34,508 nucleotides of DNA. Source: Microgenomates group bacterium GW2011_GWF2_47_9 (lineage in GTDB: Bacteria > Patescibacteriota > Microgenomatia > UBA1400 > UBA12108). The notes beneath the pieces were generated by a model. That model searched no databases. It worked only from the letters and a program-made list of their open reading frames with translations, and was not told the DNA's origin. The stretch is from contig LCPA01000004.1 of assembly GCA_001003385.1 (NCBI GenBank), positions 1 through 34,508 on the forward strand. The letters run 5' to 3'. A program made the translations under genes and the position numbers. Position 1 is the stretch's first letter; each line of letters opens with the position of its first letter. Positions 4,190-24,729 of the stretch are shown one piece after another.

Positions 4190-5905
4190 TCAAGTATGCG
4201 CGACCCGCATCACTTCCTCGATCGAAGTAATGCCTTCCAAAGCCTTAAGATATCCATCCTGTGTCATTAAAACCATCCCGTCTAGAACAGCCGCTTTCTC
4301 GATCTCACTTGCCGGCGACCGCTCCAAGATGAGCTTCGCCACCCGCTCGCTGACCCGTAGTACCTCAAAAATCCCAATCCTTCCCTTATAACCAGAGTCG
4401 CCACACTTCTCACACTTCTTCCCTCGATAAAGCGTAATCGGCTTTCCCCCACTTGTTGAAACAAATGAATCAAACAATGGCCCTAACACACTCTTCAACT
4501 CCTCAACTAGTGGGGCAGGGGGGGTATAGGATTCCTTGCAGTCCTCACAAATCTTGCGCACCACCCTTTGCGCGACTACACACGTGATCGAGCTAGCAAG
4601 AAGAAACGGCTCGGCCTGCATATCCAAAAGCCTTGGCAATGCCCCAGAGGAAGAATTCGTATGCAAAGTCGAGAAGACCAAGTGTCCCGTCAAACTAGCC
4701 TGGATTGCCAAATCTGCAGTCTCGTTGTCGCGAATTTCACCGACCATGATAATGTTGGGGTCCTGTCGCAAAAACGACCGGAGTCCACTTGCAAACGTCA
4801 AACCAGCCTTAGTATTGATCTGCACTTGGTTGACCCCATCCATCTGGTACTCGACAGGATCCTCCAAGGTTACGATGTTTACTTTGGGTGTGTTTAAGAT
4901 ATGCACAAGCGAATAAAGGGTAGTTGTTTTGCCAGAACCAGTCGGACCGGTAATCAATATAATCCCGTGTGGGACCCTGACTGATTCCTCCAAGTTCTTT
5001 AGAGCCGCCGCCCGTAACCCCAAATCCGATAGGGTAGGGACATTCCGGCTTTTTCTCAAAAGCCGCATCACAATCTTCTCTCCATCAACGGTCGGCAAAC
5101 TCGACACACGCAAGTCAACCTCCTGCTCATCTGCCAAAAAAGTAAACCTGCCATCTTGAGGTAATCTCCGCTCATCTATTTTGAGACCCGACAAAATCTT
5201 CACCCGCGACACGACCGCCTCATGAACTCGCTTGGGTAAGACAAGTTTTTCCTGCAAGATTCCGTCAATTCTGTACCTGACCCTGGTGTGATCCTCCAAA
5301 GGCTCGATATGGACATCGCTCGCCCTCGCATTCATGGCAAACTCAAGCACCGTCGCCACAATTTTGGCAATCGGCGCCTCCTTAATCACTTCCCCGATCT
5401 TAGTCACGTCAACAATTCGTTTACGCAGACCATCATCCTGGTTTTCCTTCAGTACCTGGCTTACCTCAGCCGACAAGCTTTGGGCATAGCGATGCGGAAT
5501 CTCCTCGACAAGCTCGCTTTCCATGGTCATGAATGGCTTAACCTTGCTCCCACTCTTTGCCTCCAAGAACGCGATGGTTTGCAAATCCAAAGGATTTGCC
5601 ATCGCAACCGACAACAAGTGTGTTTTCACATCATAAGCAAAGGGCAAAACTTTGTAGCGGATCGCGACCGACTCTGGGATCTTCGATAATGCCTCTGGAC
5701 TCGATGCCAAACCAGCCAAGGTCATGTAGGGGACATTAAACACCTTCGCTCTTGCCTTCACGATCTCCGCTTCATCGATCAGTCCAGATGAGAGCAATAA
5801 ATCGTCAACCGGAGTTCCGCTCTTTAAGCTTTCCTGTTTCAGGCGTTGGTAATTTTCCTCACTAAGCAAACCGTCCTTATGAAGAACGAGGGCAAGATCT
5901 TGCAT
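4190..5905 (-). CDS. pilB: Pilus extension ATPase PilB
   Basis: Assembly motor (GspE/PilB family) about 571 residues long from the start chosen here. An N-terminal MshEN-type domain (to about residue 150) precedes the ATPase core. The core has ASDVHIEPLEDHTRVRYRIDG, Walker A GPTGSGKTTT, Walker B IIMVGEIRD and GHLVFSTLHTN. The tetracysteine zinc site is complete: CEDC before and CEKC after a 40-residue spacer. The track start at 5941 is rejected: TTGCAA there is the -35 of a promoter (17-nt spacer, AATACT), leaving 7 nt before ATG 5905. It is first in the pilus run and nearly back-to-back with the divergent holB-like gene. Confidence 0.95.
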   Translation of the reverse strand: MQDLALVLHKDGLLSEENYQRLKQESLKSGTPVDDLLLSSGLIDEAEIVKARAKVFNVPYMTLAGLASSPEALSKIPESVAIRYKVLPFAYDVKTHLLSVAMANPLDLQTIAFLEAKSGSKVKPFMTMESELVEEIPHRYAQSLSAEVSQVLKENQDDGLRKRIVDVTKIGEVIKEAPIAKIVATVLEFAMNARASDVHIEPLEDHTRVRYRIDGILQEKLVLPKRVHEAVVSRVKILSGLKIDERRLPQDGRFTFLADEQEVDLRVSSLPTVDGEKIVMRLLRKSRNVPTLSDLGLRAAALKNLEESVRVPHGIILITGPTGSGKTTTLYSLVHILNTPKVNIVTLEDPVEYQMDGVNQVQINTKAGLTFASGLRSFLRQDPNIIMVGEIRDNETADLAIQASLTGHLVFSTLHTNSSSGALPRLLDMQAEPFLLASSITCVVAQRVVRKICEDCKESYTPPAPLVEELKSVLGPLFDSFVSTSGGKPITLYRGKKCEKCGDSGYKGRIGIFEVLRVSERVAKLILERSPASEIEKAAVLDGMVLMTQDGYLKALEGITSIEEVMRVAHT

Positions 5906-5912
5906 ACCTCTA

Positions 5913-5941
5913 AGTATTGCAAGTTTAGCGATTTTTTGCAA
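5913..5941 (-). promoter_or_regulatory. Promoter of the pilus operon, likely leaderless
   Basis: On the minus strand, TTGCAA (5941-5936), a 17-nt spacer and AATACT (5918-5913) match 4 of 6 bases at each box. The -10 ends 7 nt before the pilB ATG, so transcription would begin at or next to the start codon. Confidence 0.5.
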
Positions 5942-5960
5942 TGAACGAACTCAAGAAATC

Positions 5961-5969
5961 TGCTAAACT
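5961..5969 (+). promoter_or_regulatory. Extended -10 before the holB-like gene
   Basis: TGcTAAACT ends 6 nt before the ATG at 5976, which would place the transcription start at or within a base of the start codon. No ribosome site is present. Confidence 0.45.
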
Positions 5970-5975
5970 CGCCCT

Positions 5976-6623
5976 ATGGACAAGTTTATTTATCACGGTG
6001 GCACGGATAAGAGCAGGAAAGAACAAATTGAAAAAGACTTTCCCCTCGACCAAATGACACTTTACAAGCTAAGTCCCATAAGAGCCTCAATCGGGGTCAA
6101 AGAAGTAAGAGAGTTAATTAGCTCGATCGCAAGCACATCAATCCGACCCAAGCTTGTCTATATCGAATCTGCCGACCTCTTAACAAACGCCGCGGAGAAC
6201 GCGCTCCTAAAGACTTTGGAAGAGCCTCCCTCTGATACCAAACTAGTTCTATCCTGTGACAACCTCCTCTCGCTCTTACCAACAATCCGCTCTCGCTGTC
6301 AAAGTGTGCGGGTACAAACTCAAAAAGGTTTAGAGCTCGAAGAAAATCTCTCGATTTTCAAAGAATGTATGCAGGCAAGCCCAGGAGTCAGGATCAATCT
6401 TGCCGATTCATTTTCTCCAGATCGCGAAACCAACCTCCTCTATCTCAATCGAGTCCTCACTAGTTTAAGACCCAAACTTTCTTCAACGACAGGCTCCTCA
6501 CTCCAAATCATCCTCCAAATCGCCTCTGCCTGCACCCAAGCTTACGAAGAGTTAAAAGCCAACTGCAACGTAAGACTTGTCCTCTACAACCTTTTTCTTG
6601 CCTTACCCAAAACGAGAGGTTAG
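5976..6623 (+). CDS. holB: DNA polymerase III delta-prime-like clamp-loader subunit
   Basis: 215 residues. The diagnostic stretch is the AAA+ sensor-1 region: KLVYIESADLLTNAAENALL, then KTLEEPPSDT and LPTIRSRCQ, as in HolB/DnaX. No Walker A P-loop is present: the N-terminus opens with FIYHGGTDKSRKEQ where GxxGxGKT would be. Delta-prime subunits are naturally ATPase-dead, so it would serve as a structural clamp-loader wedge. It is much shorter than E. coli HolB (334 residues); the C-terminal collar domain is reduced. An extended -10, TGcTAAACT, ends 6 nt before ATG. gyrB starts 77 nt downstream on the same strand. Confidence 0.82.
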   Translation: MDKFIYHGGTDKSRKEQIEKDFPLDQMTLYKLSPIRASIGVKEVRELISSIASTSIRPKLVYIESADLLTNAAENALLKTLEEPPSDTKLVLSCDNLLSLLPTIRSRCQSVRVQTQKGLELEENLSIFKECMQASPGVRINLADSFSPDRETNLLYLNRVLTSLRPKLSSTTGSSLQIILQIASACTQAYEELKANCNVRLVLYNLFLALPKTRG

Positions 6624-6649
6624 TCGCTCTGGACTCCCCAGTATACCTC

Positions 6650-8647
<1,998 letters not shown>

Positions 8648-8656
8648 GGAGGTCAT

Positions 8657-9142
8657 ATGGACACCATTAAAGTCTTTATCGAAATTCCCGCTGGGGGGAA
8701 AGTAAAGTACGAAAGGGACGAAGAAACTGGCATGTTGATGTGTGATCGCATCTTGCACACCCCCATGTTCTATCCATTCAATTACGGCTTTGTTCTCGAT
8801 AGTCGTGGAGAAGATGGCGATCCTACCGACATTGTCCTCTTAGCCTCTCAAGAACTCCAAGTTGGTTGTGGAATCAAAGCTAAACTAATCGGTATGCTTG
8901 AAATGGAAGATGAAGAAGGCATAGACACCAAACTTATCGCCGTCCCCATCGAAAAAGTCGATCCAATTTTTGGCGCTTGGCAAGATTCTTCAGACATTCC
9001 CGCCCACACCAAACTAATGATCAAACACTTTTTCGATCACTACAAAGATCTAGAACCCGGCAAATTTGTCAAAACTGGCAAATTCCTTGATCGAGAAAGC
9101 GCCGAAAAAGTCCTGTTAGCTGACATGAAAAGAGGAGGATAG
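8657..9142 (+). CDS. ppa: Inorganic pyrophosphatase (family I)
   Basis: Soluble Mg-dependent hydrolase of pyrophosphate, 161 residues. Family I active-site residues are all recognisable: [11 protein letters not shown], the CDR arginine, YPFNYGFV, the metal-binding DGDPTD, and [14 protein letters not shown] strong AAGGAGG site lies 5 nt before ATG and the gene begins 9 nt after gyrB. Its last codons contain the ribosome site of gyrA (GAGGAGGA), and its TAG overlaps the gyrA GTG start by one base. A pyrophosphatase placed between gyrB and gyrA is not a classical arrangement. Confidence 0.96.
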
Positions 9143-11795
9143 TGAGCGACGAAGACACAAACATTCTAAAACCTCTAACCCTTGGTGATGACCAGGTTGA
9201 GCCGGTGAAAGTTGAGGAAGGCGACGAAGACGATTTTTTGAACATCGTCCTAAATCCTGTTGCCACTCAATTCGGGCGTATCGCGCCAGTCAAGATTACG
9301 AACGAGATGAAAAAGGCTTACCTCGACTATGCCATGTCAGTCATTGTCTCCCGCGCCCTTCCCGACGTTCGAGACGGGTTAAAGCCTGTCCACCGCCGCA
9401 TTCTCTACGCAATGAAGGAGCTCGGACTCTCTCACTCCAGTAAATACAAAAAATCGGCTCGTATAGTAGGAGAGGTTTTAGGTAAGTATCACCCTCACGG
9501 TGATACTGCCGTGTACGACGCCATGGTACGTCTTGCTCAGGACTTTTCCATGCGCTACCCTCTGGTTGACGGCCAAGGAAACTTTGGTTCAGTCGACGGA
9601 GATTCTCCCGCCGCCATGCGTTATACCGAAGCGAGGCTCTCCAAAATTACTCAAGAACTCCTCCTTGATCTAGACAAAGAAACGGTTAGCTGGATCGACA
9701 ACTTCGATGGCACCGTCCAAGAACCAACCGTTATGCCTGCCAAACTCCCAAACTTGCTCCTTATGGGCTCCGACGGAATCGCTGTCGGTATGGCCACCAA
9801 AATCCCCCCGCACAACTTAATCGAAGTAGTCGGGGCCATCAAAACCCTCATCGCCCGCGGCCAATCACTTCGAGCCGAGGAGATAAAGGACGCCGATCTT
9901 GAGAATACCAAACCAGAAGTATTGTCAGGAGAGTTTGAGACATCAGCCACAGTCGAAGAGCTCCTCGACTCCATCCAAGGCCCAGACTTTCCGACCGGCG
10001 GTATTATCTACGACTGGTCTGCGATAGCGGAAGTCTACTCGACAGGCAAAGGCAAAGTCGTCACTCGAGCCGAAGCTAATATCGAAGAGTCTAAGACCGG
10101 CAAATTTCAGATTGTGGTCACCGAGATCCCATACCAAGTCAACAAAGCCAAACTTGTCAGTAAAATCGCCGACCTAGTCCGAGACAAGAAAATCGAAGGC
10201 ATCTCCGACCTTCGTGACGAATCTGACCGTGAAGGAATGCGGATAGTTATCGAACTAAAGAAAGCCGCAAAGCCCAAGAGTGTCCTCAACAATCTTTTCA
10301 AACACACCGAACTTCAAACCAGCTTCCCCGCCAACATGGTCGCCCTCGATGACCGAGGCACCCCCCACCTCATGAATCTCAAGTCTATTCTCACCTACAG
10401 TTCGAACTCAAGGCTACCAGGGCTAGACTCCACATTCTCGAAGGTTACCTCAAAGCCCTCGACCACCTCGACGAAGTAATTGAAACCATTAAGTCTAGCA
10501 AAGATTCCGACGACGCCAAGAAAAACCTTATCGAAAAATTTGGCTTCAGCGAAATCCAGGCGGTTGCAATCCTAGATCTTCAGCTACGAAAACTCTCGGC
10601 TCTAGAAAGGCAAAAAATTCAAGAAGAATACGACGAACTTTTGGCGACGATCACGAGACTTATCACTCTCCTTCGTGATCCTATTGCCATTCTAAACGTC
10701 ATCGTGAGCGAACTAGAAGAGCTAGTCAAAGTCTACGGCGACGCAAGGAAAACCAAGGTTGTTAAATCAAAGTTGGGTGAATTCTCGGAAGAGGACCTGG
10801 TGGCCAAAGAGGACAATCTGGTTGCGATTACCAAAGAGGGATACGTCAAGCGGATGCCACTTGGTACTTATCGCTCTCAACGAAGAGGGGGTAAAGGAGT
10901 GATGGGGATGACTACCAAGGACGAAGACGAAATTCTTCACTTAACTGTCGGTAATACTCACGATTTCGCACTTTTCTTTACCAACACCGGTAAAGTATTT
11001 ATGAACCGCGTCTTCGAATTGCCAGAAGGTAGTAGACAAGCCAAGGGGCAGGCAATCATCAACCTCATTAACATCGAGCAAGACGAAAAAGTCATGGCTC
11101 TCATGACAATTCCAGGAGGTACACTCGAAAGCAAGAACCACTTTATTACAATGGTAACTAAAAAAGGCTTGGTCAAAAAAACCCCGATTAGTGAATATGC
11201 CAGTATCCGATCGGGCGGCAAGATAGGCATTAACCTCAAAGACAATGACGAGTTGGTCCGAGCTCAAGTCACGAACGGAGAAAACTACCTTCTCCTCGTC
11301 ACTCGGGACGGGAAATCAATCAAATTCAAAGAATCCGATGTCAATCCAACAGGGAGAGACACCATGGGAGTCAAGGGTATCGCCCTTAAGAAAGATGATT
11401 TTGTCATCGCGGCCGAAACCTTTGAAATCATGCCAGCTCGCCCCGACGATAAGCGGCGTAAATTCTACCGCGAAATCCTCCTTGTCACCGAAAACGGGAT
11501 TGGCAAGCGAACCGACGTCTCTGAATACCCCGAACAAAAGAGGGGAGGGCAGGGGGTCAAAGTTGCCGAGCTAACCGATAAGACTGGGAAAGTTGCCGCC
11601 GCCCAGATGGTGAGTGAAGTTGATCTTCAGTTAGTCATGACTACCAAAAGCGCCCAGGTCATCAAACTCCCCATGAAGAATATCAAAGTCTTGGGACGAT
11701 CTACCCAAGGCGTAATCCTTATGCGACCAACCAAAGGCGACAAAGTAACCTCAATTACCACACTACAAGAAGAGGAAGAAGAGGGAGTTGTTTGA
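9142..11795 (+). pseudogene. gyrA: DNA gyrase subunit A, interrupted by a small out-of-frame deletion
   Basis: Two ORFs in different frames together make one GyrA. The first (GTG 9142 to 10479) carries an acidic N-terminal extension, the winged-helix domain, [13 protein letters not shown] and catalytic Tyr161 in [10 protein letters not shown]. Homology ends near residue 419 (NLKSILTY, about 10398). The next frame resumes at 10401 with [17 protein letters not shown] and is open to 11795. Compared with E. coli GyrA (FVRHRREVVTRRT between the same blocks), about 13 residues are missing and the frame shifts, so roughly 38-40 bp are gone. The C-terminal half has a GyrA box (QRRGGKG) and pinwheel repeats. 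Track start 10641 is an internal TTG. A real lesion would be lethal for an essential enzyme, so an assembly error is the first suspicion. Confidence 0.9.
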
Positions 11796-21777: not shown

Positions 21778-22911
21778 ATGAAAAGATTCCTCCTACTCCT
21801 ATTGGGATTCTTATTCCTCTTATTATTTGGGCATTCTCGCCTCGACAATAGTGACCTGCCTATTGCTGATTCTCTTGACTATCTTTCTACCCCCAAAAAC
21901 TTTAGGGTTGAAGTTCTAAGTAACAAAGTTGTCGGGGCTCGCAGTCTCACAAAAAGCAGAGATGGAGTCATCTACATTGGAACTCGCAAAGAAGGGGTTG
22001 TCTATGCGCTATATGATTCAAACGGCGATACCATACCAGACAAAACTCAAGTTGTCATAAGTGAACTCAATAGCCCAAACGGAGTTGCCTATCACAACAA
22101 AGACCTCTACATCGCCGAAATCGATCGGGTGATCGTTTTGCGAAACATCGACGAGAATTTCCAAAATAGCCCCAAATACGAAATAGTCATTAAACAACTT
22201 CCAAACTCAGAACACCACGGTTGGCGATATCTCAAAGTTGGTCCCGACTCAAAATTGTACCTTAGTATCGGCGCACCTTGTAACGTCTGTGAACTCAATT
22301 ATCCCCTTGGTTCGATAGCTAGAATGAATCTAGATGGCTCAGATTTTGAAGTAATCGCGACCGGGATCCGCAACAGCGTTGGCTTCTCCTGGTCACCCCT
22401 GGACAATTCCCTATGGTTCACCGACAATGGACGAGACTGGCTCGGAGACAACGCCCCGGCCGATGAACTAAACCATCTGTCAGGCACCACCAATAATTTC
22501 GGCTTTCCTTATTGTCATGCGGGAGAAATCCTGGATCCTATCTTTGGGAAGGGGAGACAATGTAATTCCTACGCCAACCCTGCGATCAAGCTCGCCCCCC
22601 ACGCCGCCGCACTTGGCATAACATTCTATACCGGTAGTATGTTCCCAAGCGAATACAAACAAAAAATTTTTATCGCTGAACATGGCTCCTGGAACCGAAA
22701 AGAGCCAATCGGGTATCGCATCACTACTGTAGAACTAAAGGATAATCAAGCAGTAAACTACGAAGTCTTCGCCGAAGGGTGGCTAGACAAATCAGGTAGT
22801 CCCCTTGGCAGGCCGGTAGACATCCTAGAAATGAATGACGGCTCACTCGTCGTCTCAGACGACCTCTCAGGCACGATCTATCGTATTATCTACTCCTCGC
22901 TCCCAGAATGA
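21778..22911 (+). CDS. Exported PQQ-dependent sugar (sorbosone-type) dehydrogenase-like beta-propeller
   Basis: 377 residues: a hydrophobic signal sequence (1-18), then a six-bladed propeller of the soluble glucose/L-sorbosone dehydrogenase family. Family marks are NSPNGVAY, HHGWRYLKVGPD (candidate catalytic His146/147), LSIGAPCNVC, ATGIRNSVGFSW (Arg198), WFTDNGRDWLGD, and FIAEHGSWNR. If active, it oxidises an aldose or aldehyde outside the cell using PQQ and Ca2+. PQQ biosynthesis genes are not in the window, so the cofactor might be scavenged, or the protein may be a non-PQQ propeller. It lies head-to-head with the membrane-protein and redox run and overlaps the recombinase gene tail to tail by 22 nt. 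Confidence 0.82.
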   Translation: MKRFLLLLLGFLFLLLFGHSRLDNSDLPIADSLDYLSTPKNFRVEVLSNKVVGARSLTKSRDGVIYIGTRKEGVVYALYDSNGDTIPDKTQVVISELNSPNGVAYHNKDLYIAEIDRVIVLRNIDENFQNSPKYEIVIKQLPNSEHHGWRYLKVGPDSKLYLSIGAPCNVCELNYPLGSIARMNLDGSDFEVIATGIRNSVGFSWSPLDNSLWFTDNGRDWLGDNAPADELNHLSGTTNNFGFPYCHAGEILDPIFGKGRQCNSYANPAIKLAPHAAALGITFYTGSMFPSEYKQKIFIAEHGSWNRKEPIGYRITTVELKDNQAVNYEVFAEGWLDKSGSPLGRPVDILEMNDGSLVVSDDLSGTIYRIIYSSLPE

Positions 22912-23846
22912 AATTTCTCGTGCACCCGCCTCAACTGTGGATTTGTGACATGAGTATAAATCTGCGTTGTTGCGATATTCTTGTGTCCCAACATCTCCTG
23001 GACCTCTCTTAACCCCGCCCCATGCGAAATCAAATCAGTCGCAAAAGAGTGTCGCAGGACATGGGGCGTTACCGAAAAGGGCAGGTGGGCCAAACGTCCG
23101 TACTTGGCAATTATTCTCTGGACAGATCTGGTAGTCAGCCGGAGTCTTGCCCCCTCCCTAACTTCATCAATCGCAGGTTTACGACTGTGCTGTATAAAAA
23201 CCGGGGCATAGTGGTCATTTCGCTCTTTCAAATATCGCTCGATCCAATGGCAGGCGCGAGAAGATAAAAATACGACTCTAATCTTTTTGCCCTTCCCAAC
23301 TACCCCAAATTCTCTAGTTTCCAAGTTCAAGGTCACCTTATTAAGAGAAACCAGTTCCGACACCCTAAGGCCCGTTGAAAACAACACCTCCATAATCACT
23401 CGGTCACGCAAACCATAAATCGTCGAGACGTCAACTGCCTCCATCATCCTTGAAATAGAATCAAAATCCATAAACTTGATCGAGTGGTCTTTGCCTTTAG
23501 GCAACTCTAACCGCTCGGGGCTCACCACCTCGTAATCTTGCCGCACCAAATACCTAAGCATGGATCGAATCGCAATTACGTAATAGCCCTGGGTCACGGG
23601 GGCCAAAAACTCTCCCCGTTCGTTCTTCCGGTTAGCTAAATAGAGTCGGTACTGCTTAAGCATTTTGGGAGTGACCATCTCCATCCTCGCAACGTGGATC
23701 TGTTTCTTAAGCCAGTCGATGAAGGTAGTTAAGTACAGTCTGTAATTGCGAACTGTGTAAGGCGAGACTTGACGCTCAATAGTTAGGTACTCGAGGTACT
23801 CATCAACCAAGTCCTCTAATGCAGATGATCTGGACTTATCACTCAT
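22890..23846 (-). CDS. xerC: Xer-type tyrosine recombinase
   Basis: 318 residues. The N-terminal SAM-like DNA-binding domain (VDEYLEYLTIERQVSPYTVRNY) precedes the catalytic domain. All six catalytic residues are visible: Arg in STGLRVSEL, Lys in VGKGKKIRV, His-x-x-Arg in HVLRHSFAT, His in LGHKNIATT and Tyr in QIYTHV. The integron-integrase insert is absent. Length and motifs fit a chromosome-dimer resolvase (XerC, XerD or XerA); which one cannot be decided. The start has AGG 6 nt upstream. The 880-nt non-coding region behind it is a natural place to look for its target site. Confidence 0.93.
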   Translation of the reverse strand: MSDKSRSSALEDLVDEYLEYLTIERQVSPYTVRNYRLYLTTFIDWLKKQIHVARMEMVTPKMLKQYRLYLANRKNERGEFLAPVTQGYYVIAIRSMLRYLVRQDYEVVSPERLELPKGKDHSIKFMDFDSISRMMEAVDVSTIYGLRDRVIMEVLFSTGLRVSELVSLNKVTLNLETREFGVVGKGKKIRVVFLSSRACHWIERYLKERNDHYAPVFIQHSRKPAIDEVREGARLRLTTRSVQRIIAKYGRLAHLPFSVTPHVLRHSFATDLISHGAGLREVQEMLGHKNIATTQIYTHVTNPQLRRVHEKFHSGSEE

Positions 23847-23970
23847 ATATACCTGACTGCTAGAGAACTAGAATTAAATTTGGACCTGGTATATCCATCC
23901 TTTTTATACATACACATCTGGCACACATTCCTTAGTCATAAGTCCCTGTCCTATAGTGATATTAGCTAGT

Positions 23971-23981
23971 ATCCTATAATA
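23971..23981 (+). repeat. ATCCTATAATA repeat, plus-strand copy
   Basis: Exact copy of an 11-mer whose inverted copies lie near 24.64-24.69 kb. It contains a consensus -10 (TATAAT), so it may act as the promoter of whatever is transcribed rightwards; a purine-rich GGGTAGGGA follows. Confidence 0.6.
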
Positions 23982-24001
23982 AAAGGGTAGGGAACATCAG
24001 C

Positions 24002-24103
24002 ATGAGCATAAGAACATTGTGCGACATCATTCATTATCTGTCAACCAGGGACCTGCAAAGACAGGCTAGTTCCCCTCCAAACGCCCGATACTACCAGAGG
24101 TAG
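24002..24103 (+). CDS. Possible 33-residue ORF in the gene-poor region
   Basis: ATG to TAG, 33 codons, starting MSIRTLCDIIHYL and ending ARYYQR. A -10 TATAAT (23974-23979) and AGGGA 8 nt before ATG would allow expression. No family is recognised. The hairpins CCTG/CAGG (24052-24065) and CTACC/GGTAG (24091-24103) lie inside it, so the same DNA could instead be the 5' part of a structured RNA. Too short to judge from composition. Confidence 0.2.
   Translation: MSIRTLCDIIHYLSTRDLQRQASSPPNARYYQR
24016..24027 (+). repeat. 12-bp direct repeat ATTGTGCGACAT, copy 1
   Basis: Exact 12-mer also present at 24347-24358. Chance recurrence of a 12-mer within 900 nt is unlikely. In copy 1 it encodes LCDI of the small ORF at 24002. 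Confidence 0.75.
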
Positions 24104-24287
24104 AGGCTGTAGAATCAGTTTTCTGCCACATAAACCTGCAGTCCCAACCTCTTTCAGGGCAAAAAACGAAAAAAACTTCGGTAAAACTTCGGAAAGGCAA
24201 TTTTTGGGATCCACGAACAGATGGGGGAATAATACGCACGTAAAATAGGGGTAACAGAATTAAACCGGAATTATTTTCAATTTATAA

Positions 24288-24365
24288 ATGAAAAAAAATA
24301 ATCTTGGCCTCCCTACTCGTTCCAGGTTATATGTCATAAAAGATATATTGTGCGACATTGTCTAA
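24288..24365 (+). CDS. Possible 25-residue ORF sharing the LCDI repeat
   Basis: ATG to TAA, 25 codons, MKKNNLGLPTRSRLY followed by VIKDILCDIV. It shares the 12-bp repeat with the ORF at 24002 and in the same frame, which suggests a duplicated fragment. It has no clear ribosome site. Low confidence. Confidence 0.12.
   Translation: MKKNNLGLPTRSRLYVIKDILCDIV
24347..24358 (+). repeat. 12-bp direct repeat ATTGTGCGACAT, copy 2
   Basis: Second exact copy, 331 nt after the first and just 5' of the long hairpin at 24363. The same reading frame (LCDI) is open here as well, in a 25-codon ORF. Confidence 0.75.
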
Positions 24366-24429
24366 CCTCTTACCCTGTCGCCTTAGTCCCACTAAAAGGG
24401 CATAAGGGCCGACAAGCGAGATTAGGTTA
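24363..24429. other. Long interrupted hairpin
   Basis: Nested complementary arms: TAACCT with AGGTTA, TGTCG with CGACA, CCTTA with TAAGG, and CCC with GGG around the loop ACTAAAA. About 19 base pairs in all, with internal loops. No T-run follows, so it is not a plain terminator; it looks like a structured RNA or a recombination-site fold. Confidence 0.6.
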
Positions 24430-24634
24430 ACAACTTAACTCCATCCATCCCTCACTATTCTTTAAGCTAGTATTACTTATCGCGAATCTATCTCCTGAGA
24501 CAAGACCCCCTCGCGCGGCCAGCCCCCTCTAGCACTCAGAACTACACACCTGCTGAGTAAATATGTTTAACAGTACAAACTATATCATTCAGTTTTACAA
24601 AGATCGGTTCCCTTTTATGCACATTTCGTGAAAA

Positions 24635-24691
24635 TATTATAGGATATATGTGAAAAACGTGATTTATTATAGGATAAATAATATTATAGGA
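24635..24691 (-). repeat. Three minus-strand copies of the ATCCTATAATA repeat
   Basis: TATTATAGGAT is exact at 24635-24645 and 24665-24675, and 10 of 11 bases match at 24682-24691. Read on the minus strand each holds a TATAAT box. Together with the plus-strand copy at 23971 they face inward across about 650 nt. Confidence 0.6.
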
Positions 24692-24729
24692 CTATACCCT
24701 CCCCTCCCCCAGATACACAACCCGTTTTT

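What the first reader, a model, noticed from the sequence alone, without database searches (positions are those of the whole stretch)
23847..24729. 880-nt structured, repeat-bounded non-coding region behind a Xer recombinase
Seen: in an otherwise gapless window this is the only large gap. It has inward-facing ATCCTATAATA copies (one left, three right), a 12-bp direct repeat, and several hairpins. Known RNA families I could check by eye do not fit. It may be a new structured RNA, the recombinase target or dif region, or the remnant of an excised element.
Basis: partly seen in the sequence, partly recalled or inferred. Interest (0 to 1): 0.6.

Follow-up and report, generated by a model that had tools for sequence, protein, structure and literature searches.

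The report
Patescibacterial dif chromosome-resolution site
The 883-bp gap is not an RNA gene but the chromosome-resolution (dif) locus of a tiny Patescibacterium: it holds the 28-bp site where the neighbouring Xer recombinase should cut and rejoin DNA, a half-copy of that site in the recombinase's own promoter, and a conserved cluster of likely protein-binding motifs that includes a DnaA box.

Summary
The gap, the repeats and the inverted motif copies are real; excess RNA structure is not (fold z -0.8 and +0.5; no Rfam hit). Its core, window 24331-24358 (minus strand), ATGTCGCACAA-TATATC-TTTTATGACAT, is a dif site: 11-6-11 dyad, usually single copy, in 58 of 88 genomes of the order and 99 of 380 sampled across the phylum (reversed control pattern: none). 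Throughout the order it lies in a 0.65-3.9 kb gap between xer and DUF5656-yebC. In three single-contig chromosomes whose GC skew has nearly one sign all round, the skew steps near dnaA and within about 11 kb of dif; in two others dif is off the skew terminus. Inovirus-like prophages sit at the same 28-mer in other Patescibacteria, one flanked by a full dif and a 19-nt partial copy. The 12-bp repeat is a lone recombinase arm inside the predicted xer promoter (TTGACA-N17-CACAAT), suggesting autoregulation. Right of dif, 28 of 29 order loci carry a DnaA box in one orientation, with CGTGAAAA, CTATATCA and TATAGGA motifs. I found no earlier description of dif in this phylum. The dif call is strong, the operator likely, the DnaA-box module's role open.

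The parts
22890..23846 (-). Xer tyrosine recombinase gene (318 aa), catalytic R-K-HxxR-H-Y conserved
   Evidence: Pfam PF00589 E 1.4e-40; XerD/XerC/XerA models, all below cut-off; alignment of 14
23847..24729 (.). xer-DUF5656 intergenic region: the dif locus
24331..24358 (-). dif site ATGTCGCACAA-TATATC-TTTTATGACAT
24017..24027 (-). lone recombinase arm ATGTCGCACAA (half-site), likely Xer operator
24016..24044 (-). predicted xer promoter TTGACA (24039-24044), 17 nt, CACAAT (24016-24021)
   Evidence: 10 of 12 consensus matches; same geometry in all six family genomes
23949..23978 (-). two left copies of the TATAGGA motif (23949-23955, 23972-23978), in the predicted xer leader
24576..24587 (+). 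CAAACTATATCA motif
   Evidence: found only at the dif locus in 790 kb of G025; CTATATCA in 24 of 29 order loci
24615..24623 (+). DnaA box TTATGCACA (variant of TTATCCACA)
   Evidence: position and orientation conserved in 28 of 29 order loci
24627..24656 (+). CGTGAAAA (24627-24634) and TGTGAAAA (24649-24656) pair
24635..24691 (+). three TATTATAGGA copies (24635, 24665, 24682)

Best explanation
The gap is a xer/dif module. Shown by sequence: a 28-bp dif site upstream of a Xer recombinase gene, conserved across the order, at or close to a GC-skew break in three of five single-contig chromosomes examined, and occupied by inovirus-like prophages in related Patescibacteria. Inferred: when recombination leaves a chromosome dimer, Xer (alone or with the second conserved Xer-like protein) binds two dif copies and exchanges strands at the 6-bp centre, with the FtsK gamma domain found in these genomes as the likely activator at division. 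The lone arm in the xer promoter is most likely an operator through which Xer limits its own transcription. The cluster of DnaA box and repeats beside dif is probably a protein-DNA assembly site tied to the terminus; this last step is the least certain.
For: 28-mer in 58/88 order and 99/380 phylum genomes, nearly always once per genome, 0 in the reversed control. Conserved xer-dif-DUF5656-yebC order. Catalytic residues invariant. FtsK gamma in 9/9 genomes. Free two-break skew fits at 685, 360 and 815 kb against dif at 684.1, 348.7 and 818.9 kb. Prophage L231 flanked by a full 28-mer and a 19-nt partial copy, beside murG; in seven relatives murG lies 1.2-1.5 kb from an intact dif. Half-site in the xer promoter. 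DnaA box in 28 of 29 loci.
Against: No experiment. In G025 and G084 dif is 0.20 and 0.17 of the chromosome from dnaA and the main skew shift is elsewhere. A second Xer-like gene is conserved, so one-recombinase action is not shown. Xer scores below every equivalog cut-off. 30 of 88 order genomes gave no match at 3 mismatches; some hold diverged copies, the rest were not checked. Operator and module functions are inferred from position only.
Confidence: 0.93

Rival explanations
1. A new structured non-coding RNA is transcribed from the gap, and the repeats are parts of its helices.
For: Large conserved non-coding region; several family-level blocks could form short hairpins.
Against: Fold z -0.80 and +0.46; no Rfam match; consensus folds of blocks are weak, -2 to -7 kcal/mol (its column-shuffle z-scores look strong but the control breaks up conserved blocks); order-wide conservation is limited to short motifs.
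Confidence: 0.03
2. The locus is a second or main replication origin (DnaA box, AT-rich repeats) beside dif.
For: Conserved DnaA box and AT-rich repeats; one-sign skew (PMC7143001 proposes unidirectional replication).
Against: Skew steps run in opposite senses at dnaA and near dif, so dnaA behaves as a source of forks and dif as a sink. There is usually one DnaA box, and in G007 two to three others lie by dnaA.
Confidence: 0.06
3. The 28-mer is an attachment site of a mobile element and the gap is the scar of an excised element.
For: Prophages do sit at this 28-mer in relatives; a partial copy (half-site) lies about 320 bp away in the window.
Against: Same place, neighbours and block order throughout the order; the half-site falls in fixed promoter geometry in 13 of 20 loci, which a random scar would not.
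Confidence: 0.03

Closest known systems
Bacterial dif/XerCD (E. coli, B. subtilis)
   Different: different arm sequence (ATGTCGCACAA / ATGTCGCAAAA type); xer gene lies next to dif in this order; lone arm in the xer promoter; DnaA-box module beside dif
XerS/difSL of streptococci and lactococci
   Same: recombinase gene genetically linked to its dif site (PMC5357621)
   Different: difSL is 31 bp with an 11-bp centre; here 28 bp with a 6-bp centre, 0.3-2 kb or more from xer, and a second Xer-like gene exists
Archaeal XerA/dif
   Same: 11-6-11 site; dif 122-142 degrees from oriC in Thermococcales (PMC2958812), here 133-152 degrees in three genomes
   Different: FtsK-independent in archaea; NF040815 score below cut-off; in Thermococcales dif is not next to xerA
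Xer-exploiting filamentous phages (IMEX)
   Same: inovirus-like prophage at dif, flanked by a full and a partial dif
   Different: in Patescibacteria, from metagenomes; PMC6813254 reports inoviruses in the Candidate Phyla Radiation but its main text does not mention dif or Xer

Membership tests
dif site | 28 bp, two 11-bp inverted arms around a 6-bp centre | tested here: met
dif site | one copy per chromosome | tested here: met
   nearly all matching genomes have one place
dif site | lies at or near the replication terminus (GC-skew shift) | tested here: inconclusive
   met in G007, G009, G015 after allowing a constant offset; not met in G025 and G084; not testable in the window's own draft genome
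dif site | recombined by Xer protein(s) | not testable with these tools
   indirect: prophage insertions at the 28-mer
Xer recombinase | tyrosine-recombinase catalytic residues and XerC/D-like full length | tested here: met
   below equivalog cut-offs, so not filed as XerC, XerD or XerA
FtsK-activated Xer system | FtsK with gamma domain in the genome | tested here: met
   9 of 9 genomes; activation itself and KOPS motifs not tested
XerS/difSL-type single-recombinase module | 31-bp site with 11-bp centre next to xerS, only one Xer | tested here: not met
   28-bp site; second Xer-like gene in most genomes checked
IMEX (for L231) | inovirus-like genes flanked by dif and a partial dif in direct orientation | tested here: met
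known structured RNA (Rfam) | covariance-model match at gathering score | tested here: not met
bacterial oriC | several DnaA boxes at the skew source | tested here: not met
   usually one DnaA box; the locus behaves as a skew sink

The most novel reading that the evidence does not exclude
The DnaA initiator acts at the terminus: a DnaA-bound module next to dif, conserved across this order, controls fork arrival or terminus anchoring and so couples replication initiation to chromosome resolution.
Probability: 0.15. Interest if true: 0.85.

Novelty: new variant of a known kind. Interest (0 to 1): 0.6.

Why it matters
It gives a dif site to a very large, mostly uncultured bacterial phylum, and a terminus landmark where GC skew alone was hard to read: in this group a one-sign skew was taken to suggest unidirectional replication (PMC7143001), but steps near dnaA and near dif point to a terminus near dif in three genomes. 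The predicted Xer operator and the DnaA-box module are specific, testable additions to a textbook system, and the site predicts where filamentous phages of these bacteria integrate.

Tried and rejected
Rfam scans of the window, the gap and eight relatives, RNA folding and consensus folds: no RNA. KOPS-like FtsK-orienting motifs were not tested. A generic palindrome search upstream of Xer in more distant Patescibacteria was too noisy to use, though a few (for example L177) show a different dif-like palindrome close to xer. TATCAAACTATATCA in viral contigs gave many hits in unrelated-looking contigs and was set aside as chance. A terminator hairpin just right of dif was suspected but not supported. 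The first idea, from G025 alone, that dif is far from the terminus in the order in general was dropped after G007, G009 and G015.

Full report
Observation. The gap 23847-24729 is real, non-coding and the largest in the ORF list. Four exact TATTATAGGA copies, one facing three, and the 12-bp repeat ATTGTGCGACAT are present. The claim of structure is not supported: folding is ordinary on both strands and Rfam finds only a tRNA-Leu gene elsewhere in the window.

The core is dif. A search of 53 related genomes with the gap found short conserved blocks in 23, the window's own genome included. The block shared most widely is a 28-mer, in the window ATGTCGCACAA-TATATC-TTTTATGACAT on the minus strand (24331-24358). 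As a pattern it occurs in 58 of 88 order genomes, nearly always once, and in 99 of 380 genomes drawn from the phylum; the same pattern read backwards occurs in none. Genomes without a match at 3 mismatches may hold diverged copies; G005, G009 and G015 do. Changes in the outermost bases are sometimes matched on both sides (L021, L112).

Neighbourhood. In the order the gene order is xer - gap with dif - DUF5656 - yebC, often continued by the same further genes. The gap is 0.65-3.9 kb long. The encoded Xer keeps the catalytic residues and is closest to XerD and XerC models, below their cut-offs. A second Xer-like gene of about 290 aa is found in nearly all genomes checked; the two copies read (G025, G007) have Asn in place of the usual His of the HxxR motif (sequence; G025 copy classified). 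FtsK with a gamma domain is found in 9 of 9 genomes.

Terminus. G007, G009 and G015 are single contigs whose sampled GC skew keeps one sign in 93-99% of bins. PMC7143001 reported this in the group and proposed unidirectional replication as one possibility. A free two-break fit places one break at 685, 360 and 815 kb; dif is at 684.1, 348.7 and 818.9 kb, and the other break lies about 50-66 kb from dnaA. In G009 a sampling gap follows 360 kb. The shorter dnaA-dif arc has the stronger skew in all three. I read this as a constant strand bias plus an ordinary replication component with dif near the terminus; mostly one-directional forks that often end near dif are not excluded. In G025 and G084, both of one other family, dif lies 0.20 and 0.17 of the chromosome from dnaA and the main shift is near 490-500 kb, with a smaller step at dif. 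So the terminus criterion is met in three genomes and not in two.

Recombination in nature. Nine viral-collection contigs carry the 28-mer. L231 (9.2 kb) has murG and a second gene, then the full 28-mer at 2225, then about 5.3 kb with a G2P-type Rep protein and a morphogenesis ATPase (PHROG match only), then a partial copy with 19 identical nt at 7537. L233 shows a similar left junction. L229 (3.9 kb) has a Pfam Zot protein and carries the 28-mer at the 3' end of its rep-like gene. In seven genomes of other families of the phylum murG lies about 1.2-1.5 kb from an intact dif, so L231 looks like an occupied site and these like empty ones; in G251 and G457 the distance is about 6.3 and 7.7 kb, not examined further. 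This is the signature of phages that exploit Xer.

Half-site in the promoter. The repeat copy at 24016 is a lone arm. On the xer strand it forms TTGACA-N17-CACAAT in all six family genomes, with the arm over the -10. In further loci of other families the arm lies just upstream of a TTGAC[AGT] -35, usually with a plausible -10 at 17-18 nt. By my reading about 14 of 20 loci with a lone arm fit one of these two layouts. Autoregulation is my inference.

Right module. In 28 of 29 non-redundant order loci a DnaA box (TT[AT]TNCACA) lies about 150-900 bp right of dif in one orientation; background for TT[AT]TCCACA is 0.017-0.030 per kb. CTATATCA, CGTGAAAA and TTATAGG occur there in 24, 20 and 20 of 29 loci. 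Ranking 400-bp stretches of the sampled sequence of five genomes by these motifs puts the dif locus first in each; most of those loci helped to find the motifs, G007 did not. The module lies downstream of DUF5656 and far from the predicted xer promoter, so a promoter role is unlikely. Its function is open; a terminus-linked protein-DNA complex is my best guess.

Literature. Searches of the held library for dif or Xer together with this phylum found no description; preprints and most subscription papers are not held, so a prior description cannot be excluded. Earlier dif prediction covered 16 phyla in 2011 (PMC3025954).

Noticed in passing
L024 about 4600-6822 (genome G001): The xer gene of this family member carries an in-frame insert of about 420 aa inside the HxxR-H active-site motif, matching intein splicing and LAGLIDADG domains: an intein in a Xer recombinase.
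   Followed up: yes
G007, G009, G015 (whole contigs, sampled): GC skew keeps one sign in 93-99% of bins around the chromosome; the cause of the constant offset is unexplained (reported for related genomes in PMC7143001).
   Followed up: partly
L046 (G025 about 167.6 kb) and L081 (G007 about 90.2 kb): A second conserved Xer-like protein of about 290 aa has Asn where the catalytic His of HxxR is expected.
   Followed up: partly
window 9142-11795: A gyrA-like gene appears as two ORFs (9142-10479 and 10641-11795), possibly a frameshift or assembly error.
   Followed up: no
L021-L025, right of dif: Palindrome of the type CCAGATGTNACATCTGG, one or two copies, in the other family members but not in the window.
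   Followed up: no
G251 C1 192-199 kb; G457 C1 422-430 kb: murG-dif distance is 5-6 kb longer than in relatives, possibly further prophages at dif.
   Followed up: no
G025 and G084: In this family dif is displaced from the GC-skew terminus, with only a small skew step at dif.
   Followed up: partly
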